DNA of 33,309 nucleotides from Solirubrobacteraceae bacterium. Lineage in GTDB: Bacteria; Actinomycetota; Thermoleophilia; Solirubrobacterales; Solirubrobacteraceae. Where the stretch lies: positions 1-33,309 of the forward strand of contig JASHQV010000193.1 of assembly GCA_030038955.1 (NCBI GenBank), read 5' to 3'. A model generated the notes under the pieces. The model was not told where the DNA came from and made no database searches. It saw only the letters and a program-made list of their open reading frames with translations. Made by a program: the position numbers and the translations under genes. This document shows positions 1 to 25,105 of this stretch, one piece after another (within the stretch, counting starts at the first letter, position 1; every line of letters starts with the position of its first letter).

Positions 1-227
1 AAGTGGATGCGGCGCAACTCGCCGTCAACGACGACGGGCAGCCCCCGGCGCTCCTGCTCGGCGACCACCGCACGCACGGCATCGTCCTGGACGCCGAGAA
101 GGGTCGCTTCGTCCAGCTCGCCGGCGCGGAAGCGTGCGAACGCGTCGAGCAGGGGCGGCGGCCGTAGGAGACTGCCCACCTGGTCGACATGGAGCGATCG
201 CAGGTCCGTGTCGACCTCAGGCGTCAT
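1..227 (-). CDS. MetE-like (core methionine synthase family) protein, N-terminal part
   Basis: This gene is absent from the ORF track because its stop lies beyond the window edge. Reading leftward from the ATG at 227 gives an open frame of 75 complete codons with the motifs VGSLLRPPPLL and VVVDGELRR. The same two motifs open the other two MetE-like proteins here (leftward at 12540, rightward at 20356). The family is the UroD/MetE-like zinc methyltransferase fold; the zinc-binding half would lie outside the window. The start overlaps the stop of the upstream Fe-S gene as ATGA, so translation is probably coupled. It is the fourth gene of a leftward operon beginning with the VOC gene. Substrate unknown. 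It could be a short methionine synthase or a paralogue using another thiol or methyl donor. Confidence 0.85.
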   Translation of the reverse strand, partial: MTPEVDTDLRSLHVDQVGSLLRPPPLLDAFARFRAGELDEATLLGVQDDAVRAVVAEQERRGLPVVVDGELRRIH

Positions 228-1516
228 CCGCTGTGACCGTGCACCGGCGCGGATGGAGAGACATCCGCTTCCGAGGGCTTGAAGTACTTGGGTGGGTCGA
301 ATCGAAGCTCTGGCGGTCGGGTGAAGCCGGGCGGGATCGGTGGCTTCTCTCGGGAGCCGTAGCGCCGGCCGTCGATCGGCCACACGTATCCCTCCAGCTC
401 GTCGGTTCCCTTCCCCAGGATCCTGCCGGTGCGCTCAAACTCCTCCGTCACGGCCGCCAAGCCGTAGCGCTGGACGGGGCAAACCTTCATGCAGATCGCG
501 CAGCCGTAGGCTTGACCCATCACGGGCAGGCAGCGTGAGACGTTGATCTTCGCCTTCTCGACCCCGCGCGTCATCCATCGCCGAGCCGGGATGGCGCCTG
601 TGGGGCAGCGCTGCACGCACACCTGGCAGGCTTCGCAGATGCGCGTCACGCCGAAGTCACGCGGGGAATCGAACTCGAGCGGCGCATTAGTAGTGAGCAA
701 AGTAGGACGGCAACGGGAACCAGCTTGCGGAGTCAGCAGCTGGCCGTTCTGCCCGAGCTGTCCTAGGCCAGCCTCAACGGCGTAGTGGATCACGATCCCG
801 TGCGCGTCGCCGGCCTCGGCGGCGGCGGCGTAGCCGCAGGCGTGCAGCCAGCGCGCCAGGTTGGTCATCAGCTCGTGCACCTTGGTGAATGCCTCGAAGG
901 TCGCCCGCTCGCTGAGCGCAGATGGCGCCTCCTGGACGGCCTCCCAGCTCTGCTCTACGAAGCCCACGACCACCCGGTCCCCCTTCTCCTGCCCGTGGTA
1001 GTCGACGAAGTGGTAGCGAGGGTCATACCGTGCCACCCCCACAGCGGAGAGGCCGATCGCGGCCGCGTGGCGACGAAACGCTGCGGTCAGCTCGGCGGCG
1101 TCAATTGGGTCTGCGGTCGCCGTCGGCGTCACGCAGGCCGTGGCCCGCTCGGCCAGCGCCACCCGGGTCATGCGCGGCAACCGCGGAGCGAGCACGTGCC
1201 AGTGCTGCCTCAGAATCCAGGTTATCGCCGGTCCGTGATCGGTGTGAAAGTCACGCAGAGGAGCGCGCTCGTAGGCCTCATCCTCCGCAGCCCGGTCACG
1301 CCGGATTCCTGGGACGCCGCGCAACTCTGCCGGCACGCTGCGGTCGTAGCTCGCCCACGCTCCCAGGATTGGTTTCGTGCCGGATCTGGCAGGAGCGGCG
1401 GGCAGGCACCTGAGCAGCTGCTCGGCGCGCGCCGACAACAGCCACTCACCGAGCCGACCCGGCCATCCTTGCATCAGTCGCCGACGGATGCGGTAGCGCA
1501 AGCAGGTGGAACTCAC
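224..1516 (-). CDS. Double 4Fe-4S protein, QueG / reductive dehalogenase-like
   Basis: A 430-residue protein. At about residues 293-304 lies CEACQVCVQRCP, followed near 325-345 by CLPVMGQAYGCAICMKVCP, the two ferredoxin-type 4Fe-4S ligand sets of epoxyqueuosine reductase and reductive dehalogenases. The preceding stretch AGLGQLGQNGQLLTP plus DFGVTRICE resembles the cobalamin-binding/Fe-S junction of those families and looks closer to dehalogenases than to QueG. There is no Tat signal and no fused reductase domain, so a soluble cytoplasmic protein is expected. I chose the GTG at 1516 rather than the longer track ORF because it overlaps the upstream stop as GTGA; the longer N-terminus only shadows the upstream gene. 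Its stop overlaps the next start as ATGA. Function in this catabolic operon is unknown. Confidence 0.82.
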   Translation of the reverse strand: MSSTCLRYRIRRRLMQGWPGRLGEWLLSARAEQLLRCLPAAPARSGTKPILGAWASYDRSVPAELRGVPGIRRDRAAEDEAYERAPLRDFHTDHGPAITWILRQHWHVLAPRLPRMTRVALAERATACVTPTATADPIDAAELTAAFRRHAAAIGLSAVGVARYDPRYHFVDYHGQEKGDRVVVGFVEQSWEAVQEAPSALSERATFEAFTKVHELMTNLARWLHACGYAAAAEAGDAHGIVIHYAVEAGLGQLGQNGQLLTPQAGSRCRPTLLTTNAPLEFDSPRDFGVTRICEACQVCVQRCPTGAIPARRWMTRGVEKAKINVSRCLPVMGQAYGCAICMKVCPVQRYGLAAVTEEFERTGRILGKGTDELEGYVWPIDGRRYGSREKPPIPPGFTRPPELRFDPPKYFKPSEADVSPSAPVHGHSG

Positions 1517-2145
1517 CAGGCCACGGTAAAGCGGCGGCCCCGGAAGCGCGGAGACTCCAGCTCGTCTAGCACTGCCACGGAGTAGTCCGCGGTCGAGATC
1601 CGGCTCTCCCCTGAGATGTCTGTCAGGAGCGTGTCTTCGCCGGTGCGGTAACGGCCAGTTCGCTCCCCGGGTTCGAGCAGGTGAGCCGGGCTCAGGTAGG
1701 TCCAATCGCGTCCTTCTCCCTCTGTACGGTAAATCTCCAGCGCACGAGCCTGGGCGTCGGAGCTGGGCTTCCAGTCGTCGGGGAAGTCGGGCTGGGAGGA
1801 GACCGTGCCACCGGCGGGGTGGTTGAGGCTGCCGGCGCCGCCGACCGCAAAGATCCTCGTCTCGCCGGCCGCCGCAAGTAGCGTGCGTGCCGCCTCGACG
1901 ACCACGTCTGGGTTCCCCTCCGCGGCGCCCCCGACCGCGGTTATCGCGGCATCTGCGTCGCGCGCCAAGAGCGCGACGCAGGCCGGATCCGTGACATCGC
2001 CGGAGATCACAGTCAGGCTCGGATCCTGCTGGTCAAGCTGCGAGGGGTTACGGCTGACCGCGGTCACCTGGTGACCCCGCTCAAGTGCTTCGACGAGGAT
2101 GGCGCCGCCGACCATTCCGGTGGCTCCGAACAGCACGAGCTTCAA
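1513..2145 (-). CDS. NAD(P)-binding epimerase/NmrA-like protein (atypical SDR)
   Basis: The 210-residue product starts KLVLFGATGMVGG, a Rossmann dinucleotide-binding loop (GxxGxxG) typical of atypical short-chain dehydrogenases. This is followed by VSRNP, suggesting NADP preference, and by TYLSPAHLLEPGERTGRYR, seen in the NAD(P)H-binding/NmrA-like group. The track ORF extends further upstream, but that part overlaps the VOC gene. The TTG at 2145 overlaps the VOC stop as TTGA and places the Rossmann strand right at the N-terminus. It probably reduces or epimerises an intermediate of the pathway; the substrate cannot be read from sequence. Confidence 0.82.
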   Translation of the reverse strand: MKLVLFGATGMVGGAILVEALERGHQVTAVSRNPSQLDQQDPSLTVISGDVTDPACVALLARDADAAITAVGGAAEGNPDVVVEAARTLLAAAGETRIFAVGGAGSLNHPAGGTVSSQPDFPDDWKPSSDAQARALEIYRTEGEGRDWTYLSPAHLLEPGERTGRYRTGEDTLLTDISGESRISTADYSVAVLDELESPRFRGRRFTVAW

Positions 2146-3785: not shown

Positions 3786-3787
3786 TC

Positions 3788-6661: not shown

Positions 6662-6667
6662 TTGCTC

Positions 6668-9240: not shown

Positions 9241-9324
9241 GTGTCGCGTCGAACAGGGTCCTCGGCATCACAACCACCCGCTCGTGGCAGTGCAGTGAGT
9301 AAGCACGTATAAGGAGAAGAAGCA

Positions 9325-10445: not shown

Positions 10446-11420
10446 ATGCCTTCGATAGTCGACTACCAGGCCCACTGGTATCCACGTTCGTACGTGGACT
10501 CGCTCGTGGGTCGCCAGGAGTTCCCGCGGGCCCGGCGGGAGGGGAATGAGATCCTCTATGAGCCGCGGCCAGGCGAGCTCTGGCGAATGGGGACCGAGTA
10601 CGTCGACCTCGACGCCCATCTCGCCGACATGGATGCCAACGGAATTGACACCGCGGTGATCAGCGCCAACCTGCTTGGCGAGGTCAGTCGCTTGGAGCTA
10701 CCGGAGGCGGTGCGCATCACGCAGCTGTTGAACGAGCTGGTGGCAGAGGCGCAGCATGCGCATCCACAGCAGATCGTCGGGCTGTGCATGCTGCCGATGC
10801 AGGACTCCGGTGCGGCGCTGCAGGTGCTCAACCGCGCAATCTGCGAGCTGGGACTGCACGGTGTGTGCGTACTGTCAAATATAGGCGGACAGCCACTCGT
10901 CGCGCCCGACTTGCTTCCGGTGTACCGCCGGATCGAGGAGCTCGGGGTGCCGCTGTTCCTGCATCCGTCCCACACCTCCATTGCGGTCGAAGCGGTATTG
11001 GGGCCGACGATCGAGGTGGGGCTGGCTTGGATGTTCGACACGGCAGCAGCTGCACTAGCGCTGATCTATGGCGGTGTGCTTGACGCGTGCCCTTCGCTGA
11101 CCGTCGTGCACCCACATCTCGGGGGGACGCTTCCCTACGTTACCGGGCGCGTGATGGAGTGTGAGATCGGCGCATCGCCGCAGCACGACCTGCTCAGTTA
11201 CCTTCGCACGCGATTCTACGTTGATTGTGTGCAGAAGACGCCCGGCGCGCTGCGCCTCGCCATCGAGACCTACGGTGCCGAGCGGATCCTATATGGGACC
11301 GACTTCCCCTGGGTGACGCGCCCGAGCACGCGCGCCTACGTCGAGGACAATCTCGCGCCGGACGTGCTCCACCAGGTGCTCTACCACAACGCGCTGCCGG
11401 CGTTGCGGCTTCCTCGCTGA
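10446..11420 (+). CDS. Amidohydrolase family 2 protein (ACMSD-like decarboxylase/hydrolase)
   Basis: 324 residues with the TIM-barrel amidohydrolase-2 layout: N-terminal IVDYQAHWYP, LFLHPSH near the middle, VVHPHLGG and a final YGTDFPW carrying the catalytic Asp. The first metal motif, normally HxH, reads QAH, so the first His is replaced by Gln; related decarboxylases are known with Glu there. Members decarboxylate or hydrolyse ring-cleavage and aromatic acids, or hydrolyse lactones. No clear ribosome site precedes ATG 10446; the gene probably depends on the transporter transcript. It converges with the MetE-like gene with only 28 bases between stops. Confidence 0.87.
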   Translation: MPSIVDYQAHWYPRSYVDSLVGRQEFPRARREGNEILYEPRPGELWRMGTEYVDLDAHLADMDANGIDTAVISANLLGEVSRLELPEAVRITQLLNELVAEAQHAHPQQIVGLCMLPMQDSGAALQVLNRAICELGLHGVCVLSNIGGQPLVAPDLLPVYRRIEELGVPLFLHPSHTSIAVEAVLGPTIEVGLAWMFDTAAAALALIYGGVLDACPSLTVVHPHLGGTLPYVTGRVMECEIGASPQHDLLSYLRTRFYVDCVQKTPGALRLAIETYGAERILYGTDFPWVTRPSTRAYVEDNLAPDVLHQVLYHNALPALRLPR

Positions 11421-11448: not shown

Positions 11449-12540
11449 CTAACCCCACACTCGCCGCGCGACGGCCGCCACCAGCCGGAGCTTCTCCTCC
11501 TGCGTGCGCTCGGTTATCTCGTTGCCCATTGCCACCGAGGCAAAGCCGCACTGGGTCGCGACCGCCATCGTCTCCTTGGGATGGAACTTAGACGCATCCT
11601 CCACGCGGGCGATCAGATGATCGAACGACTCCAGCTCGTTGGTCTTGGTCGATACCAGCCCGAGCACGGCGGTCTTCTCCTCGGGCATGTCCGCGAGCGC
11701 CTCAAACGTTCCCGCTCGCTCATCGTCGTACTCGAGCACGAAACGGTCGAAGTTTGACGCTTTGGCGAACAGCTGCTTGGAGATGCTCTCGTATCCCCCG
11801 CCGGCGATCCATCGGCTCTGGTAGTTGCCGCGGCACAGGTGCAGCGCGAAGTCGACACCGTCAGCGTCGGCCACGCTGTTGATGATCTCGATGCCCTCGC
11901 CGAGGACGCGGTCGGGCTCGATGCCAAGCGAGGCCCAATGCTCGCGCATTACGGGATCGACCATCTCGCAGAGGTCGGGCGCGTCGATCTGGATGTAGCG
12001 GCAGCCGTGAGAGGCGAGAACGTGCGCCTCCTCGCGGACCAGATCGGCCGCGTCGCGGAACATGTCGAACGGGTCGGGATAGACCTCGCCGCTGCGCTCT
12101 GGCGTGTACATGGCATATGTCATCAGCGGACTGGGCAGGGTGACCTTCAGCGGCTTGAAGGCACGCGCGCGCGAGTACGCGAACTCAGGCGGGGTGAGCA
12201 TCTGCTTGCGCGTTAGCTTCCCGGTCACCGACTCGGGGCTCTGGAAATCGATGTCGTTGCCATCGGCGGCGTGAAATGGGACCGGTTTGGCCGGGACCTC
12301 GGAGAGACCCTCGACCGCGGTGATGAGCTGATCGAAGAATGTGAAGCGACGCATCTCGCCGTCGGTCACGACGTCCATGCCCACACCCTCCTGGAGCGCG
12401 ATCGCCTGGTCGACCGCCCGATCCTCAACGCGCCTGAACTCGGCCGGCTCAAGCCGACCGACCTCGAACGCCTCCCGCGCCTCACTAAGGTAACGCGGGC
12501 GTAGGAGTGACCCAACGACGTCTGCTCGATAAGTGCCCAT
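11449..12540 (-). CDS. MetE-like core methionine synthase family protein (copy 2)
   Basis: 363 residues, only the catalytic UroD/MetE barrel without the N-terminal duplicated domain of full MetE. The zinc ligands are all present: HLC at about residues 233-235, the Glu of LEYDDE near 270 and the Cys of TQCGF near 329. QIDAPDL corresponds to the substrate-binding QIDEP of MetE. GAGGAG lies just before ATG 12540. It is transcribed alone from a TTGACG-17-TAGGGT promoter with an operator directly upstream. Short MetE-family proteins include corrinoid-dependent methionine synthases and epoxyalkane:CoM transferases; the regulon context favours a pathway-specific methyl or thiol transfer, but ordinary methionine synthesis is not excluded. 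Confidence 0.9.
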   Translation of the reverse strand: MGTYRADVVGSLLRPRYLSEAREAFEVGRLEPAEFRRVEDRAVDQAIALQEGVGMDVVTDGEMRRFTFFDQLITAVEGLSEVPAKPVPFHAADGNDIDFQSPESVTGKLTRKQMLTPPEFAYSRARAFKPLKVTLPSPLMTYAMYTPERSGEVYPDPFDMFRDAADLVREEAHVLASHGCRYIQIDAPDLCEMVDPVMREHWASLGIEPDRVLGEGIEIINSVADADGVDFALHLCRGNYQSRWIAGGGYESISKQLFAKASNFDRFVLEYDDERAGTFEALADMPEEKTAVLGLVSTKTNELESFDHLIARVEDASKFHPKETMAVATQCGFASVAMGNEITERTQEEKLRLVAAVARRVWG

Positions 12541-12659: not shown

Positions 12660-14132
12660 TCAGGAGAAGCCCGGCAGGACTCGCCTCCGGACCGCGCAGA
12701 GCACGAACACCGCACCTGCCAAGCCGAGGCCGCAAGCCACGAGCGCGGCATCCCGATAGCCGCTGATCACAACCGCCTGCCCATGGCCGGCTGTCGCATC
12801 GGCCATCACGGTGGCCAGCACGGCTAAGCCGACGGCGCCGCCGACCTGCAAAGCCGTGCTCCACAGGCCGGACGCGAGGCCGGCAAGCTCGCCGTGTCCG
12901 AGGTCGTCGGTGCTGGTGATCATGCTCGCAACCTCAGTGCCGGCAATCCCAGCGCCGAAGAGGACGCCAGCGGGGACGAACGTGGCAACAATCGAGCCGC
13001 TGCCGCCAACCGCCGCCAGCGCGCCACAGCCGGCGCCGAGAACGCCCAATCCCGAGGCCAGCACGGCCCTCACGCCGAACCGGCCGACCAAGTGCGAGGC
13101 GTGAACCGAGAGCAGCAATGACATCGCTCCCGTCGGGAGCATCGCCAGTCCGCACGCGACGGGTGACAAGGCGCGACCATTCTGGAGGTAGACGGAGGTC
13201 AGCGCGAGCACGGCGAGCAGGATCGCGCCGAATACGAACGTGGCGACGCTCCCGGCGCCGACGTTGCCGGTGCGCAGCGCCGCGGGTGGGAGCATTGGCG
13301 CCGCCGCGCGCCGCTCCTGTGCTACGAACGCGAGACCCAGGACGAGCGAGGCCACGACTCCTGCGGTCACCGGGATCGAGCGCCAGCCGTATGTCGTCGA
13401 CTCGGCGACCCCGAACACGAGCGCGACGACCGTCCCGGTGCCGAGGAGGGCGCCGAGGACGTCGAGCGGGACGCTCCCGTGATCGCCGTGATAGGCCGGG
13501 ACGAGCCGGAGGCTCGCAACCAGCGCTAGCACGCTGAACGGCAGTAGTGACAGGAACACCGCGTTCCACCCGAGCCATTCGGTTAGCGTGCCGCCGAGCA
13601 ACAGCCCGACCGAGGCAGACAGGCCCGATACCAGTCCCCACGAGCCGAGCGCGACGTTGCGTTCGGGTCCCCGCGTGAACGTGACCGTGATGATCGACAG
13701 CGCGGCCGCTGACGCGAACGCGGAGGCCACGCCCTGCAGCGCCCGGCCGGCGACTAGGACAGCGGGCGAGGCCGCCAATCCGCATAATGCCGAAGCCGCC
13801 GTGAACAGGGCGAGTCCGCTGACGAGCATCAGACGGCGTCCGAAGATGTCTGCACAACGTCCAGCCAACAGCAGCGGACCCCCGAACGCGATCATGTAGG
13901 AGGTCTGAACCCACTGAAGGCTGCGGGCTGAAAATCCCACCTGTCGCTGGATCTCCGGGAGCGCAAGTACCGTGGAGGTATCAAGCAGAACGACGAGGAA
14001 CTGCGTTAGCAGCATCAGCCCAAGCAGCCAGCGCCGCCCCGCCAGACCGTTACCACATCTTGGACTGGCGCTGGAAGAACCAGCCAGCAGTGGGCCCGTC
14101 TTGGTCGAGCGTGGCAAGGTAGATCGAGACAT
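12660..14132 (-). CDS. MFS transporter, DHA2 (EmrB/QacA-like) family
   Basis: About 490 residues, almost wholly hydrophobic. LLDTSTVLALPEIQ in the first membrane segment, GRCADIFGRRLMLV in the first cytoplasmic loop and GRALQGVASAFASAAALSII near segment 4 are the DHA2 signatures; the length fits 14 membrane spans. The start is uncertain: ATG 14132 (or TTG 14117) overlaps the SDR gene by about 80 bases and no closer standard start is in frame before the first membrane span. It is last in the leftward ALDH-SDR-MFS operon. It probably exports or imports a pathway compound by proton antiport. Confidence 0.87.
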   Translation of the reverse strand: MSRSTLPRSTKTGPLLAGSSSASPRCGNGLAGRRWLLGLMLLTQFLVVLLDTSTVLALPEIQRQVGFSARSLQWVQTSYMIAFGGPLLLAGRCADIFGRRLMLVSGLALFTAASALCGLAASPAVLVAGRALQGVASAFASAAALSIITVTFTRGPERNVALGSWGLVSGLSASVGLLLGGTLTEWLGWNAVFLSLLPFSVLALVASLRLVPAYHGDHGSVPLDVLGALLGTGTVVALVFGVAESTTYGWRSIPVTAGVVASLVLGLAFVAQERRAAAPMLPPAALRTGNVGAGSVATFVFGAILLAVLALTSVYLQNGRALSPVACGLAMLPTGAMSLLLSVHASHLVGRFGVRAVLASGLGVLGAGCGALAAVGGSGSIVATFVPAGVLFGAGIAGTEVASMITSTDDLGHGELAGLASGLWSTALQVGGAVGLAVLATVMADATAGHGQAVVISGYRDAALVACGLGLAGAVFVLCAVRRRVLPGFS

Positions 14133-14793
14133 CGGCGCCTTCGGCCGCGGACAAAGGCGCGAACGGCGCCCCCATGTCGGTGCGGCAGTAGCCGGGGTCG
14201 GAAGCGTTCACCAGCACGCCGGCCTCCCGCAGCTCGCCGCCCATCAGCGCCGTGAGCGCGTTGAGGGACGCCTTGGTGACGCGGTAGCCGCCGTGTCCGG
14301 GGTAGTGGTCCTCGCGGCGTGAGTCAGCCATGCGCTCGAACTGGCACAGCCCGGTCGTCACGTTGACGATCCGGCCGTAGCCGTTGGCGACCATCGCCGG
14401 CACGACGAGCTGGATCAGCCGCCAGGCCGCAATCACATTGATCTCGAACATCGTTCGGAGATCGTCGAGATCGGCCTCCAGCGCCCCGTGCTCTTCGTCG
14501 AGCTCCGCCGCAGCGTTGTTGACGAGGACGTCCAGCCGCCCGTGCCGGTCCTGGATTTCCCGCACGAGCGCTTGTGCCCCCTTCGCATCAGTCAGTTCGA
14601 GGGCATCGCCGAGCACGGTGGCGCCGGTCTCCTGGATCAGTGTCGCCGCGACGCTCGAGGCAAGCTCGCCGTCGCGGCCGGTCATGTGAACGACGAGCCC
14701 AGCCTTGGCTAAGCCCCGAACGATCTCCGTGCCGATCCCGCGGGTTGCCCCCGTGACCAGCGCAATTCGCTGAGCGTCGGACCCGACGTTCAT
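14050..14793 (-). CDS. Short-chain dehydrogenase/reductase
   Basis: 247 residues of classical SDR layout: cofactor motif TGATRGIG near residue 14, NNAA in strand 4 and catalytic YRVTK near residues 168-172; the usual catalytic Ser position appears as Thr (NVTTG). HMTGRDGE after strand 2 suggests NADP(H). The DPGYCRTDMG segment matches SDRs. The start overlaps the aldehyde dehydrogenase stop as ATGA. It probably interconverts an alcohol and a ketone or aldehyde feeding the neighbouring aldehyde dehydrogenase. Confidence 0.92.
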   Translation of the reverse strand: MNVGSDAQRIALVTGATRGIGTEIVRGLAKAGLVVHMTGRDGELASSVAATLIQETGATVLGDALELTDAKGAQALVREIQDRHGRLDVLVNNAAAELDEEHGALEADLDDLRTMFEINVIAAWRLIQLVVPAMVANGYGRIVNVTTGLCQFERMADSRREDHYPGHGGYRVTKASLNALTALMGGELREAGVLVNASDPGYCRTDMGAPFAPLSAAEGADVSIYLATLDQDGPTAGWFFQRQSKMW

Positions 14794-16274
14794 AGGACTA
14801 CGTTCACCACCTTCTCCTCGGTGTGGGCCCGAATCGCCGCCTCGCCCAGCTCACGGCCGACGCCGCTGGTCTTCATGCCCCCCCAGGGCAGCCGGGGATC
14901 GGGCGCGCCCCAAGCGTTAACCCACACGGCGCCGGCACGGATGCGGGCCGCGATCGTGTGCGCCTTGGTCACATCCTGCGTCCACACGACCGCGGTCAGG
15001 CCGTAGCGGGTGTCGTTGGCCAGAGCCACGGCCTCATCGGGATCGTCGAACGGGATCACGGTACCCACAGGACCGAAGATCTCCTCGCGGGCGATCGTCA
15101 TGTCGTTGGTGCCCGCGAAGATCGTCGGCTCGACGAAATAGCCCCGTCGCTCCAGCCGCTTACCGCCGGTCACCAGCTGCGCGCCCTCCTCCTCGCCGGA
15201 ACGGACGTAGCCCAGCACCCGGTCCAGCTGTGCCTGGTTGATCAGCGCTCCCATCGTCGTCCCTTCGGCAAACGGATCACCGACCACGATGTCTCGTGCA
15301 AATGCCTCCAGCCCCTCGACGACCTGGTCCTGCACCTGGCGCTGGACGAAGATCCGACTGCCAGCCGCGCACACCTCGCCGGCGTTGGCGAACACCGAGA
15401 TCGCCGCCGTGGGGATCGCAACGTCCAGGTCCGCGTCGGCGAAGACGAGCTGAGGAGACTTCCCCCCGAGCTCCAGCGTCACGGGCTTGAATGCCGCCGA
15501 CGCGATCTCGGCGATCCCGCGCCCCACCTCGGGACTGCCGGTGAACGACACCTTGTCGATACCGGGGTGGCGCACGAGCGCCGCGCCCGTGCTGGAACCC
15601 GGTCCGGGCACGACGTTTACCACGCCATCGGGCAGACCGGCCTCGTCGAGCAGCGAGACGAGGTGAAGCGTCGAGAGCGGGGCATCCGCCGGCGGCTTGA
15701 CCACCAACGTGCAGCCGCAAGCTAGCGCCGGGGCGAGCTTCCAGGAGGAGATCATCACCGGCGCGTTCCAAGGCGTGATCGCGGCGACGACACCGATCGG
15801 CTCCCGGCGCGTGTAGCAATGCCGAGAGCGCCCCATGAAGTCCGGCACCGGAATCACCTGACCGCCGATCCGGTCCGCCCAGCCGGCAAAGTGACGAAAC
15901 GTCTCGGCCGCCATTGGCACGTCGATATTCCGCGGATCGCCGACCGGCTTGGCGATCTCCAGCGCCTCGAGCTGCGCCAGCCGATCGGCGTCACGCTCGA
16001 TCAAATCGGCGATGCGCCACAACAGCCGGGCGCGTTCGGTACCGGCCATTCGTCCCCACTCGTCGCTCTCGAGGGCAGCACGGGCGGCGGCCACGGCGCG
16101 GTCCACATCAGCCTCCGAGGCGCGCGCCACCTCCGCGATTTGCTCTTCCGTCGCGGGGTCAAAGACCGGAAAAGTTGCTCCTGCCTCGCCGTTTTGCCAG
16201 CTACCGCCGATGAACAGGCCCAGCTCGGGTAGTGCGATCTGGAACCTCCCGCGGGTGATGCTCAGGGCGCTCAT
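14790..16274 (-). CDS. NAD(P)-dependent aldehyde dehydrogenase
   Basis: 494 residues, the normal family length. ITPWNAPV, VVKPPADAPLS, VSFTGSPEVG, the general base Glu in LELGGKSP near residue 268 and the catalytic Cys in GEVCAAGSRIF near 301 are all intact. AAGGAG lies nine bases before ATG 16274. It is first in a leftward operon with SDR and MFS genes and divergent from the small ABM gene, sharing operator F. The related betaine-, hydroxymuconic-semialdehyde- and phenylacetaldehyde-dehydrogenase groups cannot be separated by eye. Confidence 0.94.
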   Translation of the reverse strand: MSALSITRGRFQIALPELGLFIGGSWQNGEAGATFPVFDPATEEQIAEVARASEADVDRAVAAARAALESDEWGRMAGTERARLLWRIADLIERDADRLAQLEALEIAKPVGDPRNIDVPMAAETFRHFAGWADRIGGQVIPVPDFMGRSRHCYTRREPIGVVAAITPWNAPVMISSWKLAPALACGCTLVVKPPADAPLSTLHLVSLLDEAGLPDGVVNVVPGPGSSTGAALVRHPGIDKVSFTGSPEVGRGIAEIASAAFKPVTLELGGKSPQLVFADADLDVAIPTAAISVFANAGEVCAAGSRIFVQRQVQDQVVEGLEAFARDIVVGDPFAEGTTMGALINQAQLDRVLGYVRSGEEEGAQLVTGGKRLERRGYFVEPTIFAGTNDMTIAREEIFGPVGTVIPFDDPDEAVALANDTRYGLTAVVWTQDVTKAHTIAARIRAGAVWVNAWGAPDPRLPWGGMKTSGVGRELGEAAIRAHTEEKVVNVVL

Positions 16275-16757: not shown

Positions 16758-17483
16758 CTAGGGAAGCACCGCCAGCTCGTCCCCGAACAATGAGCGAGCG
16801 ACGCTCTCGGCGAGGTCCAACAGCCTCGGCAGGTGCTCGGCGATCCCGGATGCTCTGGTGGTCGGGATCAGAATGGCGAGACTTGCCACCGCCTGCGATC
16901 CGTCGCGCACAGGAACCGCCAGCCCATACACCTCGTTCTGTAACTCGTCGTGCGAGATCGCGTACCCGAACTGGCGTACCGTGTCCAGCTGGCTGCCCAG
17001 CCGGTCATCTCCTCCAGCGGCCGAAAGGATCCGATCGATCGTACCCTGCTCCATGAACGCTAGCAGGGCCCGTCCGCTCGCCCCCAGCGTCAGCGAATGG
17101 CGCGATCCGATTCGGTGCTGCACCCGGACAACATGGGCAGTACCCACCACCTGCTCGAGCACCACCGCGTCGTCTCCGTCTGGCACGTGGAGCACGATCG
17201 TCTCGCCAATCTCGGAGGCCAGCGCCGCCATGTCACCGGCGGCCGCGGCACGCAGTTCGGGTTCAACGCGCGCGGCGAGCCTGACCAAGAGCGGCCCGGG
17301 CACATAGCCGCCCTGCTGGCGGATAATGAACCCGCGGCGATGCAGCGTGCTGAGCAGGCGGTGGATCACGGTCCGATTGAGACCAAGCGCGCGGGATAGC
17401 TCAGCGGCGGTCATCGGACCTGACTCGCTCAGCTCCACCAGAGCTGCCAGAGCCTCGTCGGCGGTCTTGGAGATCTCGGCCAT
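16758..17483 (-). CDS. IclR-family transcriptional regulator
   Basis: About 241 residues. An N-terminal winged helix (TADEALAALVELSESGPMTAAELSRALGLNRTVIHRLLSTLHRRGFI) is followed by the IclR effector domain with SLTLGASGRALLAFM, FGYAISHDELQNEVYGLAVPV and VASLAILIP. ATG 17483 gives the normal N-terminus; ATG 17510 is an alternative. No ribosome site is evident, and a TAATAT on the minus strand (17500-17495) lies only about 12 bases upstream, so the mRNA may be nearly leaderless. The gene is divergent from the FAH operon across operator G. It is the only IclR gene in view and so the best candidate to bind the seven PcaR-like dyads, perhaps with a pathway intermediate as effector. Confidence 0.93.
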   Translation of the reverse strand: MAEISKTADEALAALVELSESGPMTAAELSRALGLNRTVIHRLLSTLHRRGFIIRQQGGYVPGPLLVRLAARVEPELRAAAAGDMAALASEIGETIVLHVPDGDDAVVLEQVVGTAHVVRVQHRIGSRHSLTLGASGRALLAFMEQGTIDRILSAAGGDDRLGSQLDTVRQFGYAISHDELQNEVYGLAVPVRDGSQAVASLAILIPTTRASGIAEHLPRLLDLAESVARSLFGDELAVLP

Positions 17484-17618
17484 GCTGAGACAGGATATTA
17501 CGGGCGGCACCCGAAAGCCGGGCCCACCAGCACGATTCTGGGCATCTTACGACTCAGGTGGTTCCTTTGATTTTCGATGAGAAGAACTACAGTACATGCC
17601 GAGTCCGTTTGTGCTAGT

Positions 17619-17638
17619 TTCGATCAGTAGTGAACGAT
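17619..17638. promoter_or_regulatory. Operator dyad G
   Basis: TTCGATC-AGTAGT-GAACGAT followed by TACCGG: the ATCG-N12-CGAT geometry is kept with several mismatches in the arms. It lies 14 bases before ATG 17653 in the gap between the divergent iclR and FAH genes. It is the weakest of the seven sites. Confidence 0.45.
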
Positions 17639-17652
17639 TACCGGACGCTGCT

Positions 17653-18609
17653 ATGAAACTGGTTTCATACGAGCAGGGCGGCCGGCCTCGCCTTGGCGCA
17701 CTGGACGACCGCCTGGGAGTGATTGATCTCCGCCGCGCCTACGCGCTGCTTCTGCTTGCACAGGGCGAGTCGGCGCCGGTCGCCAGAGCCCTGGCACAGG
17801 CCCGGATTCCACTGGAGGCAGACGCGTTCCTCGTCACCGGGCAGAGCGGACGCGACGCCGCTCAAGCCGCAGTCCGGCACGCTGCCGGGCTCGACGACCG
17901 GACGGTCCGGCGTGAGGCGCTGGCGGTGCCGCCAGCCGACGCTCGACTGCTGCCGCCAGTCCCTCGGCCGCGGAAGGTCGTCTGCGTGGCGCGCAACTAC
18001 GCCGAGCATGCAAGAGAGGCAGGGCTGAAGCTCTCGGAGATCCCGATTCTGTTCGCGCGCTTTCCAGCCACGCTCGTCGCCCCCGGTGCCCCGGTGGTAG
18101 TGCCGACTGTGTCGCAGCAGGTCGACTGGGAGGGCGAGCTCGCGGTGGTCATCGGCAAGCACGGCCGCCACGTCCGTAAGGAGCAGGCAATGGACTACGT
18201 GGCGGGCTACTCGATCTTTAACGACGTTACCGTCCGCGACTACCAGTTTCGAACGACGCAGTACACGGAGGGCAAGAACTTTCACGCTTCGGGGCCGTTC
18301 GGGCCGTTCCTCGCTCTGACGGACGAGATCTCGGATCCCCACGAGCTCGAGATCGTTACGGAGGTCGACGGCGTCGAGAAGCAGCGGGCCAATACGGCGG
18401 ATCTGATCTTCGATATTCCGACTCTGGTGGAGCACATCTCGACCTTCATTGAGCTTGAGCCAGGGGACGTGATTCCCACGGGAACGCCGGCCGGCGTCGG
18501 GTTCAAACGTGAGCCGCCGGAGTTTCTGCGTCCCGGCCAGACGGTCACGGTACGCATCACCGGCTTGGGCGAGCTAGAGAACCCCGTAGTGGCGGAGAAG
18601 CAAAGTTGA
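17653..18609 (+). CDS. Fumarylacetoacetate hydrolase (FAH) family protein
   Basis: About 318 residues. VVCVARNYAEHAREAG begins the FAH domain, DWEGELAVVIGKHGR carries the metal-binding acidic residues, and GYSIFNDVTVRDYQ and GDVIPTGTPAGVGF complete the family pattern. Members hydrolyse or decarboxylate acylpyruvates and ring-cleavage products with Mg or Mn. The ATG at 17653 starts at the conserved MKLVSYEQ; the track's earlier ATG would extend through operator G. It is first in a six-gene rightward operon, followed by TTGA overlap with the PcaC-like gene. Confidence 0.92.
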   Translation: MKLVSYEQGGRPRLGALDDRLGVIDLRRAYALLLLAQGESAPVARALAQARIPLEADAFLVTGQSGRDAAQAAVRHAAGLDDRTVRREALAVPPADARLLPPVPRPRKVVCVARNYAEHAREAGLKLSEIPILFARFPATLVAPGAPVVVPTVSQQVDWEGELAVVIGKHGRHVRKEQAMDYVAGYSIFNDVTVRDYQFRTTQYTEGKNFHASGPFGPFLALTDEISDPHELEIVTEVDGVEKQRANTADLIFDIPTLVEHISTFIELEPGDVIPTGTPAGVGFKREPPEFLRPGQTVTVRITGLGELENPVVAEKQS

Positions 18610-19010
18610 GCTCGGAACGCTACAAGAAGGGGCTGGCGATCCGGCGCGAGGTCCTCGGTGCCGAGTATGTGGACGCCGCGCTGGCACGGGCGGACGACTT
18701 CAACCGCGAGTTTCAGGAGCTGGTGACCGAATACTGCTGGGGTGCCGCTTGGGGCGGCGAGACACTCAGCCGGCGAGACCGTAGCCTGCTCAATCTGGTG
18801 ATGATCGGCGCGCTCAATCGCGGCGAAGAGTTCAAGCTGCATCTCCGTGGCGCTCTCAACAACGGTTGCAGTCGAGCCGAGATAAAGGAGGCACTGATCC
18901 AGCTAGCGATCTACGCGGGCATTCCCGCCGGGATTGAGGCCTTTCGTCACGCGGGCGAGGTGTTCGCGTCGATAGATCGTGCTTCCTCGGACGAGGAGGG
19001 AATGCAATGA
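18606..19010 (+). CDS. Carboxymuconolactone decarboxylase-family protein (PcaC-like)
   Basis: 134 residues, close to PcaC in length. YCWGAAWGGETLSRRDRSLLNLVMIGALNRGEEFKLHLRGALNNGCSRAEIKEALIQLAIYAGIPAG follows the gamma-carboxymuconolactone decarboxylase pattern along its whole length and lacks the CxxC of the AhpD branch. The TTG at 18606 overlaps the FAH stop as TTGA and has GGAG upstream. The next gene overlaps its stop as ATGA. It suggests an aromatic or lactone intermediate, but the other protocatechuate genes are absent, so the substrate is probably different. Confidence 0.9.
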   Translation: MSSERYKKGLAIRREVLGAEYVDAALARADDFNREFQELVTEYCWGAAWGGETLSRRDRSLLNLVMIGALNRGEEFKLHLRGALNNGCSRAEIKEALIQLAIYAGIPAGIEAFRHAGEVFASIDRASSDEEGMQ

Positions 19011-20353
19011 GCACTGGGCGGAACCTCGAGTTCTACCTCTTCAATTTCGGTTCGTATCCGGATGTCCCACATGCCGACGACACGCCGCGTCGTTCGCTTT
19101 ACATCGATCTGCCGAACAGGTTCTACGACCCGCATAGAGGTCAATGGGTGCTCGACACCTACCTCGACACTCTGGCTTTTGGCGAGAAACTGGGCTTCGA
19201 TGGTATCTGTACTACAACGCAGATGGGTGGCCCGATTGGGATCACGCCGAGCTCTCTGCTACCCGCCGCATACTTGGCCGCCCGCACGGAGCGGATCAAG
19301 ATCGCTTGTCTTGGACCGATCCTCAACACGTACCTCTCGCCGATGCGGGCTGCCGAGGACATTGCGCTGCTCGATAACATGTCCGGTGGGCGTATCATCC
19401 TCGGGCTGCCAATGGGTCACGGGCAGAACTGGCACGCTGCCGGCGGCATGAACCCTGCGTACGCCCGGGAGCGCCATTGGGAGGCGCACGACCTGATGGT
19501 CAAGGCGTTCACCGAGCCGGGACCGTTTGAGTGGGTCGGAAAGCACTACCACGTCCCCTACGCCAATCTGTGGCCGAAGCCGATCCAGAAGCCCTACCCG
19601 GAGGTGTGGGTCCCGGCCGCCGGTTCTCGCATAACGTTTGAGCGGTGCGCTCAGCACCGATACACGTACCAGACGTTGTTCTCGCCACGCAAGGCACTCA
19701 AGCGCAACATCGAGGCGTTTCGTCGAGTGACCGAGGAGCATGGCTACACAGCGGAGGCGCGGCAGGTAGCTGTGGTGCTGTTCGTTCACGTCGCCGAGAC
19801 TGACAAGCAGGCGCGTCTTGAGGCAGAGCCACATATGCTGTGGGTGTTCCAGAACATGATTCGGGCCAACCGCTACGACGCGTTCCCGCCCGGCCACTTC
19901 AGCGTGGAATCGCTCCGCGGCTTCATGACCGCCGGCGGTTATCGCTCCCGCGACATCGGCGACATGACCTGGGAGGAGCTGGTCAACGAGGGCTGGGCCG
20001 TGATGGGCTCGCCCGACACCGTGATCGAGCAGCTGGAGGACGTCGTCGACGATCTCGGCGCCGGTCGCGTTGTGGTGATTGCCGATAACGGCGCCATGCC
20101 GAACTGGATGATCCGTAAGAGCATGACGCTGATGGCTGAACAGGTGATCCCGCGCTTCCGCCCGCCGGGCGGGGCGCCGATCTGGGCGCGCGAGGATCCG
20201 CGGCCCGTCCCCACGCATGCGCAGCTTGGTGCCGACCTGATTGACCGCGAGCTCCCCGCTCATCCGGTGGCGCAGATGCCCGATGGCCGCAAGATCGATG
20301 TTCGCACAAGCCACGTTCCCGACTTGCGCGACCAGTCGGGTGAGAGGAGCTGA
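19007..20353 (+). CDS. LLM-class flavin-dependent monooxygenase
   Basis: 448 residues, longer than the LLM protein at 3788. The N-terminal barrel contains DTLAFGEKLGFDGICTTTQ, RIKIACLGPILNTYLSPMRAAEDIALLDNMSGGRIILGLPMGHG and EVWVPAAGSRITFERCA, the bacterial luciferase-like pattern for FMN-dependent monooxygenases. A C-terminal tail of about 60 residues (from about PRFRPPGG) is extra. It overlaps the PcaC-like gene by ATGA and is followed after 2 bases by the MetE-like gene. It would need a flavin reductase, which is not visible in this window. Confidence 0.92.
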   Translation: MSTGRNLEFYLFNFGSYPDVPHADDTPRRSLYIDLPNRFYDPHRGQWVLDTYLDTLAFGEKLGFDGICTTTQMGGPIGITPSSLLPAAYLAARTERIKIACLGPILNTYLSPMRAAEDIALLDNMSGGRIILGLPMGHGQNWHAAGGMNPAYARERHWEAHDLMVKAFTEPGPFEWVGKHYHVPYANLWPKPIQKPYPEVWVPAAGSRITFERCAQHRYTYQTLFSPRKALKRNIEAFRRVTEEHGYTAEARQVAVVLFVHVAETDKQARLEAEPHMLWVFQNMIRANRYDAFPPGHFSVESLRGFMTAGGYRSRDIGDMTWEELVNEGWAVMGSPDTVIEQLEDVVDDLGAGRVVVIADNGAMPNWMIRKSMTLMAEQVIPRFRPPGGAPIWAREDPRPVPTHAQLGADLIDRELPAHPVAQMPDGRKIDVRTSHVPDLRDQSGERS

Positions 20354-20355
20354 CG

Positions 20356-21531
20356 ATGACGATCAGATCTACCCGCGTCCCGCGCGAGGTGGCGCGTGCC
20401 GAGGCGGTGGGGAGCCTACTGCGCAATCCTCGGATCAGTGAGCAGCTGAAGTACCTGTTCGAAGGCCAGACGACAGCTCTGCGCCCACTCGTACTGCGCG
20501 AGCGACCACAAGAGATCGCCACACTTAATCGGCTGGCCGACAAGACGATCGCCGGCCTTGTTCAGCATCAGATCGATGCTGGCCTAGATGTGGTCAGCGA
20601 TGGGGAAGTACGCCGGACGAGTTTCCTCAGTTCGTTCTACGATGCCGTGGAGGGGTTCCGGGCCCCACCGGAGCGGATGTCGGTCCACGACGATGAGGGC
20701 AACCTCATCTATGAGACGTTTAACGACCCGGTTGTCGCCAAACGCCTGCACAAGACGTACAGCCCGGCTGCCGAGGAGGCAACCTTCATGCGCTCGCTGA
20801 CCGATTACCCATTCAAGATCACGCTTCCGGCTCCCTCCTACTATTTCACGGACTTCGTCCCGATCGGCGAGTCGAGCTATAAGCACAAGCTCGAGTTCGT
20901 CGAGGATGTGTTGCACATCACCAAGCAGCTCGTAGCTGAGGCGATTGCCGCGGGCGCAACCTGGATTCAGTTCGACTTTCCGCTCTACCCGGCTTTGGTT
21001 GCCACCTCGATGAGCGAGTATGGATCGATGATCGAGCAGGTCGGTGAGAGCACGGACTGGCTGCTCGACAAGGCGCTTCAGGTCGACCGGGCCGTCACGG
21101 AGGACATCCCCGACGGCGTGATGGTCGCCCTTCATCTCTGTCGAGGCAACCTTCCAGGCGGCTTCTGGAGCGGATCGCTGGCACCAATCGCCGAGCGCAT
21201 GTTCAGCGAGCTCCCGCACAAGCGCTTCCTATTCGAGTGGGAGGACCTCTCCCGTGATGGCGACTACGAGCCGATCAAGTACGTGCCGCGCGACAGGATC
21301 ATGGCGATGGGCGTAGTCAGCACCAAGACCCCGAACGTCGAATCAGAGGACGAGATCGTGGGACGGATCGAAACGGCCAGCCAGTACCTCGACGCGGACC
21401 AGCTGGCGCTGTGCACGCAGTGCGGTTTCGCATCACTGTTCGCCGATCATCTAGTCGAAGCCGAAGACGCACAGTGGCGCAAGCTCGAGCTGATCGGGCG
21501 GGTAGCTGACCGGGTGTGGGGAAGCAGCTGA
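20356..21531 (+). CDS. MetE-like core methionine synthase family protein (copy 3)
   Basis: 391 residues, catalytic barrel only. The zinc-site motifs match copy 2: HLCRG near residue 259, the Glu of FEWED near 293 and TQCGF near 355; the substrate segment reads QFDFPLY instead of QIDEP, a divergence around the conserved Asp. GAGGAG lies before ATG 20356. It sits between an LLM monooxygenase and an alpha/beta hydrolase, unlike a housekeeping methionine synthase. The short MetE family includes corrinoid-linked methyltransferases and epoxide:thiol transferases; which applies here is open. Confidence 0.9.
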   Translation: MTIRSTRVPREVARAEAVGSLLRNPRISEQLKYLFEGQTTALRPLVLRERPQEIATLNRLADKTIAGLVQHQIDAGLDVVSDGEVRRTSFLSSFYDAVEGFRAPPERMSVHDDEGNLIYETFNDPVVAKRLHKTYSPAAEEATFMRSLTDYPFKITLPAPSYYFTDFVPIGESSYKHKLEFVEDVLHITKQLVAEAIAAGATWIQFDFPLYPALVATSMSEYGSMIEQVGESTDWLLDKALQVDRAVTEDIPDGVMVALHLCRGNLPGGFWSGSLAPIAERMFSELPHKRFLFEWEDLSRDGDYEPIKYVPRDRIMAMGVVSTKTPNVESEDEIVGRIETASQYLDADQLALCTQCGFASLFADHLVEAEDAQWRKLELIGRVADRVWGSS

Positions 21532-21556: not shown

Positions 21557-22381
21557 ATGAGCGAGAGCGAGGTCGAAGAGCGGCGCTGGGTGCATTGGAC
21601 CGAGCCAGAATGGGTTGAGATTGATGGGGTCCAGACGGCTTACCGCCGGAAGGGTGCGGGACCGCCGTTGCTGTACCTTCATGGCGCCGGACTCACGCGC
21701 CAGTGGCTGCCACTCTACGAGTATCTGAGCGCCCATTTTGACGTGATCGTGCCTGAGCACCCCGGCTTCGGCGACACCAAGATGCCCGATTGGCTGCGCT
21801 CAGTTGACGACCTCGTTCTGCACTACGATGGTCTTATCGATACCCTCGGCGTCGACGGCGTGCATCTCGTTGGACATTCCGTCGGTGGGTGGATAGGCGC
21901 GTCGCTGGCGATCACCTACCCACATCGCTTCGCCAGCCTGGCGCTGATCACGCCCGTCGGGCTGCGCATGCCCGAGGCACCGATCGCCGATGTGTTCCGG
22001 ATCGGCCCGGAGCAAGCCTTTGACCTGCTTCTGAACGGGGCGCAGGCGGAGAAGTACCTCGAGTACTTCGAGCAGGCCGGAGAGCTCGAGGACACGATCC
22101 AGGCCTACAGCGAATCGATCACATTCGCGCGGCTTCTATGGAACCCACGCTACGACATCCGTCTCGACCACCGGCTGGAGCGCATCAGGATCCCCACGCT
22201 CGTGATCGGCGCCGATTCAGACCGTGTCGTCCCGAACGCCCACATCGCGCGCTGGGCTGAGCTGATTCCGGGAGCCGAGACAACCACGATCCGGGGTGAC
22301 TCGGAGCCCACCGGCCACCTACTGATCATCCAGCAGCCGAAGCCGTTGGCGGAGGCTGTAACCGCGCACGCGCTGGCATGA
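21557..22381 (+). CDS. Alpha/beta hydrolase (C-C bond or ester hydrolase type)
   Basis: 274 residues. LLYLHGAGLTRQW supplies the oxyanion loop, GHSVGG the nucleophile elbow with Ser near residue 107, GADSDRVVP the acid and PTGHLL the catalytic His. The layout resembles meta-cleavage product hydrolases such as those following extradiol dioxygenases, consistent with a VOC protein in the same regulon, but esterase or epoxide hydrolase activity is not excluded. It is fifth in the rightward operon and its stop overlaps the next start as ATGA. Confidence 0.92.
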   Translation: MSESEVEERRWVHWTEPEWVEIDGVQTAYRRKGAGPPLLYLHGAGLTRQWLPLYEYLSAHFDVIVPEHPGFGDTKMPDWLRSVDDLVLHYDGLIDTLGVDGVHLVGHSVGGWIGASLAITYPHRFASLALITPVGLRMPEAPIADVFRIGPEQAFDLLLNGAQAEKYLEYFEQAGELEDTIQAYSESITFARLLWNPRYDIRLDHRLERIRIPTLVIGADSDRVVPNAHIARWAELIPGAETTTIRGDSEPTGHLLIIQQPKPLAEAVTAHALA

Positions 22382-23805
22382 ACAGTAGGAACAGCGCTGC
22401 CATCAGCCGCCCGCAGGCCAGTGGAATCTCGCACTGGTTTGCGCAGCTCTACCCGGACGGATGCCCGCGTCGAACGACCCTATCGGGCCTGGTCGAGACC
22501 GACGTTTGCATCGTCGGGGCGGGCTACAGCGGCCTATGGACCGCCTACGAGCTGCGCCGGGCCGACCCAACACTTGACGTGGTCGTGGTGGAAGCGGAGG
22601 TCGCTGGCTTCGGCGCGTCTGGGCGCAATGGCGGTGCGGTCATCGCGCTCCTGCAGGGAACTCGTGAGCAGTGGGCACTACGAGGCGACGGACGCCGCGG
22701 TGCGATTGCGCTCGAACGTGAGATCATCCGTACAGTCGACGAGATTGGCGAGACAGTTCACCGCGAGGGTATCGACTGCGCTTTCTCCAAGAACGGGGTG
22801 CTTGAGGTAGCGCGCACCCAGACCGAGCTCCTTCACTTTCGCCACATGGTGCAGCGCGACCGCGAGTGGGGTTTTGGCCCCGACGACTACACGATGCTCG
22901 GCGCTGACGAAACTCGGCGACGCGTGGCGGTGGATGGCGCACTCGGTGCACGATTCAGCCCTCACTGCGCGAGCATCCATCCGGGCGCGCTGGTACGTGG
23001 ACTCGCTGACGCAACCGAGCGCGCGGGCGCCGTTATCTACGAAGGCTCGCCGGTACGATCGATTGAGCCAGGACGCGCTACCACTGTAGAGGGACAGGTG
23101 CGCGCTCGGTATGTGATTCGCGCGACTGAGGCGTACACCGAGAGTCTCGAATCCGATCACCGCCAAATCGTGCCGGTGCACACTTCGATGCTGGCGACGG
23201 CGCCGATCCCAGACGAGACCTGGGCACAGATCGGCTGGGCCGGGCGGGAGGCGCTACTTGCTGAGCACCCCTTCCTTCACCTTCAGCACACAGCCGATCA
23301 GCGGATCACGATCGGCGGCGACGACAACCGAATCCCTTACCGCTACGGCTCGCGACCCAGCCCTTTAGGCGGCGCGCCCAAGCGGGTCGTACACATGTAC
23401 CACTCAGAGCTACTGCGGCTGTTCCCTGCCCTGCGCGAGATACCCATCGAGCACACCTGGCAAGGTGTGTTTGGCGCACCGCGCAGTTGGATGCCGGGCG
23501 TCCATCTGGATCGCGACACAGGGCTTGGATGGGTCGGCGGCTACGTCGGCGAAGGGGTGGCACCGTCGAACCTTGCTGGGCGCACGATGCGCGACTTGGT
23601 GCTTGGACGCGACACCGAGCTCACCCGGCTGCCACTGGTGGAGCCGCCGATACGGCGCTGGGAGCCCGAGCCTCTTCGGTTCATCGGCGCTGCAGTGGTT
23701 GCGACGATGCGCAATGTCGGCACCCGCCGCGAGCTGCGAACAGACCGACCATCACGGTTGATCACGATGGGCAATCGTCTGGCGGGATACCAGGGTCATG
23801 GTTGA
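22378..23805 (+). CDS. FAD-dependent oxidoreductase (DAO superfamily, PuuB-like)
   Basis: 475 residues. After a 40-residue lead with HWFAQLYPDG, the FAD motif TDVCIVGAGYSGLWTAYELRR appears, followed by GFGASGRNGG, a loop shared by gamma-glutamylputrescine oxidase and other DAO-type amine oxidases. The C-terminal GLGWVGGYVGEGVAPSNLAGRTMRDLVLG closes the FAD site. It likely oxidises a C-N bond of a secondary amine or amino acid. It is last in the six-gene operon, overlapping the hydrolase stop by ATGA, and is followed by a hairpin. Confidence 0.92.
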   Translation: MNSRNSAAISRPQASGISHWFAQLYPDGCPRRTTLSGLVETDVCIVGAGYSGLWTAYELRRADPTLDVVVVEAEVAGFGASGRNGGAVIALLQGTREQWALRGDGRRGAIALEREIIRTVDEIGETVHREGIDCAFSKNGVLEVARTQTELLHFRHMVQRDREWGFGPDDYTMLGADETRRRVAVDGALGARFSPHCASIHPGALVRGLADATERAGAVIYEGSPVRSIEPGRATTVEGQVRARYVIRATEAYTESLESDHRQIVPVHTSMLATAPIPDETWAQIGWAGREALLAEHPFLHLQHTADQRITIGGDDNRIPYRYGSRPSPLGGAPKRVVHMYHSELLRLFPALREIPIEHTWQGVFGAPRSWMPGVHLDRDTGLGWVGGYVGEGVAPSNLAGRTMRDLVLGRDTELTRLPLVEPPIRRWEPEPLRFIGAAVVATMRNVGTRRELRTDRPSRLITMGNRLAGYQGHG

Positions 23806-25074: not shown

Positions 25075-25105
25075 CGCGAGCCCCCTCCCGCCGGTCGCGC
25101 AGGGC

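What the first reader, a model, noticed from the sequence alone, without database searches (positions are those of the whole stretch)
20356..21531. Three MetE-core paralogues embedded in catabolic operons
Copies at <1-227, 11449-12540 and 20356-21531 lack the N-terminal domain of MetE; the two complete ones keep the full zinc site (HxC, Glu, Cys). A cell does not need three methionine synthases in one degradative regulon. The family contains enzymes with other activities, notably epoxyalkane:coenzyme M transferase and corrinoid-dependent methyl transfer. Copy 3 has a changed substrate motif (QFDFP for QIDEP). These may transfer a substrate methyl group, or add a thiol such as mycothiol to an electrophilic intermediate.
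Basis: partly seen in the sequence, partly recalled or inferred. Interest (0 to 1): 0.62.

Follow-up and report, generated by a model that had tools for sequence, protein, structure and literature searches.

The report
Methionine-synthase-like enzymes in aromatic-degradation operons
A soil bacterium carries several one-domain relatives of the methionine-making enzyme MetE inside gene clusters for breaking down ring compounds; they keep the parts that hold zinc and homocysteine, so they probably take a methyl group off a breakdown product rather than make methionine for the cell, which would be a new job for this family.

Summary
Copy 3 (20356-21531 +, 391 aa) and copy 2 (11449-12540, minus strand, 363 aa) are single-domain MetE-type proteins with an intact zinc site. 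Copy 1 is only the first 75 residues, cut by the contig end. The genome also has full-length MetE, MetH and MetF, plus three more MetE-like genes, so methionine supply does not explain them. Copy 3 belongs to a distinct, well-supported actinobacterial clade (signature D[FYW]P); copy 2 belongs to another clade. Neither groups with epoxyalkane:CoM transferase, which branches with MesD and has lost two of the three homocysteine-binding residues; copies 2 and 3 keep all three. So the acceptor is probably homocysteine, not coenzyme M or mycothiol. In 15 of 20 copy-3-clade loci there are monooxygenase or ring-cleavage genes within 7 kb (P450, HpaB, LLM, dioxygenases), against 0 of 28 in two control subfamilies; marker choice was partly circular. 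A copy-2 relative on a Rhodococcus opacus plasmid lies in a folate-dependent O-demethylation and ring-cleavage cluster. Best reading: zinc/homocysteine methyl acceptors recruited to aromatic catabolism, taking a methyl from a pathway intermediate. The donor is unknown and untested. Ordinary in fold; new in context.

The parts
20356..21531 (+). Copy 3: single-domain MetE-type (PF01717) zinc/homocysteine transferase, D[FYW]P clade
19007..20353 (+). LLM (luciferase-like) flavin/F420 monooxygenase, ends 2 nt before copy 3; 82% identical orthologue in G022
18606..19010 (+). Carboxymuconolactone-decarboxylase-family protein, overlaps both neighbours by 4 nt
17596..18609 (+). Fumarylacetoacetate-hydrolase-family protein
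21557..22381 (+). Alpha/beta hydrolase, 25 nt after copy 3
22378..23805 (+). FAD-dependent (DAO) oxidoreductase, overlaps the hydrolase by 4 nt
16758..17510 (-). IclR-family regulator, divergent from the copy 3 operon
11449..12540 (-). Copy 2: second single-domain MetE-type protein, D[AS]P[DE] clade
12660..14132 (-). MFS transporter (59% identical orthologue in the G022 island)
14050..14793 (-). SDR oxidoreductase
14790..16274 (-). Aldehyde dehydrogenase (StyD/BADH/HpaE-like)
10446..11420 (+). Amidohydro_2 family protein, convergent with copy 2
1..227 (-). Copy 1: N-terminal 75 residues of a third MetE-type protein, cut by the contig end; ATGA overlap with the RdhA-like gene upstream
224..1705 (-). 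Reductive-dehalogenase-like iron-sulfur protein, translationally coupled to copy 1

Best explanation
Copy 3 (and by extension copy 2) is a zinc-dependent S-methyltransferase whose acceptor is homocysteine. It works in a ring-degrading pathway as a methyl remover, not as the cell's methionine synthase. Proposed mechanism: zinc held by His260, Cys262, Glu294 and Cys356 binds and activates homocysteine as a thiolate, placed by Ser20, Glu84 and Asp207; the thiolate takes a methyl group from a pathway intermediate that a partner monooxygenase (here the LLM protein whose gene ends 2 nt upstream) has made into a good donor, giving demethylated intermediate plus methionine. Shown here: domain content, zinc and homocysteine residues, fold, clade, operon, and the clade's link with oxygenases. 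Inferred: zinc binding, the acceptor, methyl as the group moved, the oxidised donor, and the order of steps.
For: (1) Ser20, Glu84, Asp207 and the four zinc ligands are invariant in a 48-sequence alignment and nearly so in 132 relatives (S 127, E 131, D 131, H 132, C 131, E 131, C 130). They match the MetE/MesD residues listed by Price et al. (PMC7857596). (2) Three EaCoMTs keep the zinc ligands but have N and K/R at the Ser and Glu positions. (3) AlphaFold model pLDDT 91.6, pTM 0.92; best PDB folds are 3RPD (MesD with selenomethionine, 4e-20) and 1YPX. (4) The genome has full MetE (C71), a MetH-length frame with S-methyl_trans and B12-binding domains (C31) and MetF. (5) Copy 3 sits in a tight six-gene run FAH-CMD-LLM-copy 3-hydrolase-DAO with overlaps or gaps of at most 25 nt. 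(6) Oxygenase or ring-cleavage markers within 7 kb: 15/20 in the copy 3 clade versus 0/28 in the YxjG/H-type and DDPH controls (Fisher 1e-8). Examples: flavin reductase-HpaB-copy3-like-intradiol dioxygenase in L052; P450 directly beside the gene in L148, L154, L155 and L156. (7) Copy 2 relatives: a FAD ring hydroxylase overlaps the start in L088; the R. opacus plasmid relative lies with a LigM/DesA-type aminomethyltransferase, MetF, PurU, FolD and LigAB. (8) Precedent: MesD needs MesX and oxygen, with a flavin reductase nearby (PMC7857596).
Against: No substrate, donor or activity was tested. Marker genes were partly chosen from copy-3-clade neighbourhoods, so the enrichment is inflated; against other non-control subfamilies it is 15/20 versus 22/75 (p 5e-4). 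In G022 the orthologous LLM/hydrolase/FAH set has its MetE homologue about 14 kb away beside HpaB, so the LLM-copy 3 pairing is not fixed. Some clade members sit among housekeeping genes (L093/L150 near PrmA-like and radical-SAM genes). A P450 could demethylate an aryl ether alone, as formaldehyde. In R. opacus a LigM-type demethylase is already present, so the MetE-like protein there may only consume methyl-THF.
Confidence: 0.4

Rival explanations
1. A methionine synthase or methyl sink with a known donor: the enzyme moves the methyl of methyl-THF (or another ordinary donor) to homocysteine, to drain C1 units produced by a demethylation pathway.
For: All homocysteine and zinc residues kept; MetF is present; the R. 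opacus relative is clustered with FolD, PurU, MetF, FolE, FolP and a LigM/DesA-type enzyme that would produce methyl-THF; some clade members sit in housekeeping contexts.
Against: No N-terminal folate-side domain; MetE and MetH already present; no aminomethyltransferase, MetF or PurU genes near copies 2 or 3 or near the MetE-like genes of the other fetched loci.
Confidence: 0.25
2. A thiol-adding enzyme: zinc-activated homocysteine, cysteine or another small thiol attacks an electrophilic intermediate (quinone, epoxide, unsaturated acid) made by the monooxygenase, as EaCoMT does with coenzyme M, either to detoxify it or as a cis-trans isomerase ahead of the FAH-type hydrolase.
For: Oxygenase partners give electrophiles; FAH is in the same run and near several relatives; EaCoMT shows that the fold can open epoxides (established knowledge of that enzyme).
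Against: EaCoMT lies in a different branch with MesD and has a changed thiol site, while copies 2 and 3 keep the amino-acid site; consuming homocysteine as a conjugating thiol would be costly; no MshC above cut-off; the ComA-like gene on C493 is not in a CoM cluster.
Confidence: 0.2
3. A MesD-like aerobic methionine synthase whose methyl comes from central metabolism through a flavin monooxygenase that replaces MesX.
For: Oxygenase partnership and closest solved fold MesD; in MesD systems MesX and a flavin reductase are neighbours.
Against: Different clade from MesD; no MesX match in the genome, though the control rang nowhere so absence is not shown; the neighbours are catabolic hydrolases and dehydrogenases rather than biosynthetic genes.
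Confidence: 0.08

Closest known systems
YxjG/YxjH-type 'cobalamin-independent methionine synthase II' proteins (NCBIfam PRK06520/PRK06233; PDB 1YPX)
   Same: Same superfamily clade, single domain, zinc tetrad and homocysteine triad; A3 profile hits 1YPX at 2e-115
   Different: Copy 3 clade has D[FYW]P instead of DD[TCV]; below NCBIfam cut-offs; catabolic neighbours 15/20 versus 0/18
MesD (core methionine synthase, needs MesX and O2; PDB 3RPD)
   Same: Best structural match; core domain only; oxygenase or flavin reductase partner
   Different: Separate branch (MesD with EaCoMT 97/82); no MesX found (inconclusive)
Epoxyalkane:coenzyme M transferase (EaCoMT: EtnE, Xanthobacter 2-hydroxypropyl-CoM lyase)
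   Same: Zinc His-X-Cys...Cys core; partner of a monooxygenase in a catabolic operon
   Different: Different branch; Ser to Asn and Glu to Lys/Arg in the thiol site
MetE (full cobalamin-independent methionine synthase)
   Same: Catalytic half and active-site residues
   Different: No N-terminal half; the genome has its own MetE on C71
LigM/DesA/Dmt THF-dependent aryl O-demethylation clusters
   Same: One relative of copy 2 lies in such a cluster (R. opacus plasmid)
   Different: Unrelated enzyme fold; no such cluster in the window

Membership tests
PF01717 Meth_synt_2 (MetE catalytic domain superfamily) | Profile match above the gathering score | tested here: met
   46.8 and 57.9 bits vs cut-off 21
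PF01717 Meth_synt_2 (MetE catalytic domain superfamily) | Zinc tetrad His, Cys, Glu, Cys | tested here: met
   H260 C262 E294 C356
Full MetE | Two-domain protein of about 750 aa with N-terminal half | tested here: not met
   391 and 363 aa, C-terminal half only
EaCoMT | Groups with verified EaCoMTs | tested here: not met
   EaCoMTs form their own 100/99 branch next to MesD; copy 3 is in a 100/99 clade elsewhere
EaCoMT | EaCoMT thiol-site residues (Asn and Lys/Arg) | tested here: not met
   Copies 2 and 3 have Ser and Glu
EaCoMT | CoM biosynthesis genes alongside | tested here: not met
   None in the window; only an orphan ComA-like gene on C493
MesD | Groups with MesD | tested here: not met
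   (one MesD reference)
MesD | MesX partner | tested here: inconclusive
   No PF08908 match in the genome, but the control rang nowhere
MesB/MesC (corrinoid-dependent core synthases) | Corrinoid iron-sulfur protein as donor | tested here: inconclusive
   Only a MetH-length and a mutase-sized PF02310 frame in an 83%-complete genome; the CoFeSP family itself was not searched
Homocysteine methyltransferase (activity) | Homocysteine triad Ser, Glu, Asp | tested here: met
   S20 E84 D207 invariant in A3
Homocysteine methyltransferase (activity) | Makes methionine from homocysteine | not testable with these tools
   needs assay
YxjG/H-type equivalogs | NCBIfam PRK06520/PRK06233 score above cut-off | tested here: not met
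   153/313 and 136/576 bits for copy 3; 240/313 and 193/576 for copy 2

The most novel reading that the evidence does not exclude
Environmental MetE-II clades are demethylases of ring compounds that need neither corrinoid nor folate: a flavin or haem monooxygenase first turns a methoxylated (or N-methylated) ring into an activated methyl donor, for example a methoxyquinone, and the zinc-homocysteine enzyme removes the methyl as methionine.
Probability: 0.2. Interest if true: 0.78.

Novelty: new variant of a known kind. Interest (0 to 1): 0.5.

Why it matters
Public databases label these proteins 'cobalamin-independent methionine synthase II' or 'homocysteine methyltransferase', which hides a likely catabolic role. 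If the methyl-removal reading is right, soil actinobacteria have an aerobic route from methylated ring compounds straight to methionine, bearing on the turnover of lignin- and pollutant-derived methoxy groups. It also makes the open MesD/MesX question (where the methyl comes from when oxygen is needed) testable in a second system with an evident oxygenase partner.

Tried and rejected
EaCoMT membership: rejected by tree and residues. CoM as thiol: ComA-like gene found but orphan, with no CoM cluster. Mycothiol: no MshC over cut-off; the best hit may be a CysS-like homologue, not resolved. Corrinoid donor: nothing beyond a MetH-length and a mutase-sized frame. Link with the homocysteine-methyltransferase/SAM-methyltransferase fusion at 26334-28100: that fusion is sporadic (8 of 61 genomes) and in G022 lies far from the MetE genes, so not treated as part of the system. 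Link of the RdhA-like gene with MetE-like genes in general: its relatives in other genomes have no MetE neighbour. Literature for a MetE-like aromatic demethylase: ten searches of the held library found none; subscription journals are mostly missing. Promoter and terminator scan of the operon: no signal above shuffles.

Full report
What is there. Copy 3 (20356-21531 +) encodes 391 aa and copy 2 (11449-12540, minus strand) 363 aa; each contains only the catalytic domain of MetE, PF01717. Copy 1 (1-227, minus) is 75 residues cut off by the contig end. Elsewhere in the genome (G000, 3.6 Mb, 83% complete) are a full MetE on C71, two more MetE-like genes on C86 (one cut by the contig end) and a divergent one on C201, a MetH-length frame with homocysteine-methyltransferase and B12-binding domains on C31, and MetF. 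Methionine synthesis is therefore covered without these copies.

Operon. The run FAH (17596-18609), CMD (18606-19010), LLM monooxygenase (19007-20353), copy 3, alpha/beta hydrolase (21557-22381), DAO oxidoreductase (22378-23805) has overlaps of 4 nt or gaps of at most 25 nt, with a divergent IclR regulator. Copy 2 is downstream of an MFS transporter, SDR and aldehyde dehydrogenase on the other strand. A same-family genome, G022, has an island with the same gene set (LLM 82%, hydrolase 68%, aldehyde dehydrogenase 67%, MFS 59%, FAH 58%, an IclR) and a copy 3 homologue at 64%, but there the MetE-like gene is about 14 kb from the LLM gene, beside HpaB-type hydroxylases and a P450. So the pathway set is conserved; the exact pairing with LLM is not.

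Active site. In a 48-sequence alignment the zinc ligands (H260, C262, E294, C356) and the homocysteine triad (S20, E84, D207) are invariant; in 132 relatives they are nearly so. These correspond to the residues Price et al. give for MetE and MesD (PMC7857596). Three EaCoMT references (Nocardioides JS614 EtnE; Mycolicibacterium NBB4; Xanthobacter Py2 2-hydroxypropyl-CoM lyase) keep the zinc ligands but have Asn and Lys/Arg in place of Ser and Glu. A plausible reason is that CoM has no amino-acid head group. The same logic makes homocysteine, not CoM or mycothiol, the likely acceptor in copies 2 and 3. The AlphaFold model (pLDDT 91.6) matches MesD 3RPD (4e-20), 1YPX and full MetE structures.

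Phylogeny. The copy 3 clade is monophyletic (SH-aLRT 100; 100/99) and separate from MetE, MesD, EaCoMT and the Bacillus YxjG/H type. Copy 2 falls in another clade with Pseudonocardiaceae, Solirubrobacterales and R. opacus plasmid sequences. EaCoMT branches with MesD (97/82), outside both. Some deep branches rest on long end branches and are unsure.

Context across genomes. Within 7 kb of the gene, monooxygenase, ring-cleavage or related catabolic markers occur in 15/20 copy-3-clade loci, 5/20 copy-2-type, 5/12 DAPG, 5/10 DAPN, 3/10 DAPQ, and 0/18 YxjG/H-type and 0/10 DDPH (Fisher tests). The markers came partly from copy 3 neighbourhoods, so the size of the effect is inflated; the contrast with the two control groups was not built in but shares that bias. 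Striking single cases: flavin reductase-HpaB-MetE-like-intradiol dioxygenase in a Pseudonocardiaceae MAG, which also carries a copy-2-type gene beside a FAD ring hydroxylase (L052); a P450 beside the gene in several lineages, in L156 together with LigB, LLM, aldehyde dehydrogenase, FAH, a glutamine-synthetase-like protein and a PLP decarboxylase; and the R. opacus DSM 44186 plasmid, where a copy-2-type gene lies with a LigM/DesA-type aminomethyltransferase, MetF, PurU, FolD, LigAB, a 4-carboxy-4-hydroxy-2-oxoadipate aldolase and a PIG-L protein. The last is the clearest link to methyl groups, but it can also be read as a methyl-THF sink. Counter-examples exist: L093/L150 lie among DnaJ, PrmA and PhoH genes.

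How it probably works. Zinc-bound homocysteine thiolate attacks the methyl of a pathway intermediate; the partner oxygenase makes that methyl transferable. MesD/MesX is a precedent for an oxygen-dependent donor. The identity of the donor, and even that the moved group is methyl, is inference. I give this 0.4, a known-donor synthase or methyl sink 0.25, thiol conjugation or isomerisation 0.2, and a MesD-like general synthase 0.08.

Verdict. No prior report of such a role was found in the held library, which does not cover most subscription journals.

Noticed in passing
224-1705 (-): Reductive-dehalogenase-like protein (PDB 4RAS 8e-23, PceA-type 3e-22, with a 4Fe-4S double cluster) whose stop overlaps the start of copy 1 (ATGA). 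Relatives in other genomes have no MetE neighbour.
   Followed up: partly
24145-28100 (-): PfkB kinase, SAM synthetase, and a homocysteine S-methyltransferase fused to a class-I SAM methyltransferase: looks like a SAM-regenerating methylation cassette. The fusion is sporadic in the family (8 of 61 genomes) and often multi-copy.
   Followed up: partly
1-227 (-) and L038 7791-8571 (-): Contig C86 ends inside the 5' part of a MetE-like gene and this contig begins inside the 3' part of one, in compatible orientation; the two may be one gene, which would put C86 (HyuA/HyuB, another copy-3-type gene) next to the window. Not proven and not joined.
   Followed up: partly
L038 48-3871 (-): Hydantoinase/oxoprolinase A and B subunits directly after a copy-3-type gene in the same genome; a HyuA/HyuB pair also occurs in the G022 island.
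   Followed up: no
L039 (contig C201), PF01717 match at 3477-4004 (-): Divergent MetE-like gene with an EaCoMT-like HxCWGN motif but an intact homocysteine triad, beside an alcohol dehydrogenase-like frame.
   Followed up: partly
L177 (R. opacus DSM 44186 plasmid, 468-512 kb): Plasmid-borne cluster that looks like complete THF-dependent O-demethylation plus protocatechuate/gallate 4,5-cleavage, with its own folate synthesis genes (FolE, FolP, PabB, Mur-ligase-type).
   Followed up: partly
28281-30616 (+): Two LuxR-type regulator genes in tandem; the second has GAF-domain matches.
   Followed up: no
6662-10380 (+): Sugar-type ABC importer (ATPase, permease, binding protein) between the catabolic genes; similar transporters recur in the G022 island.
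   Followed up: no
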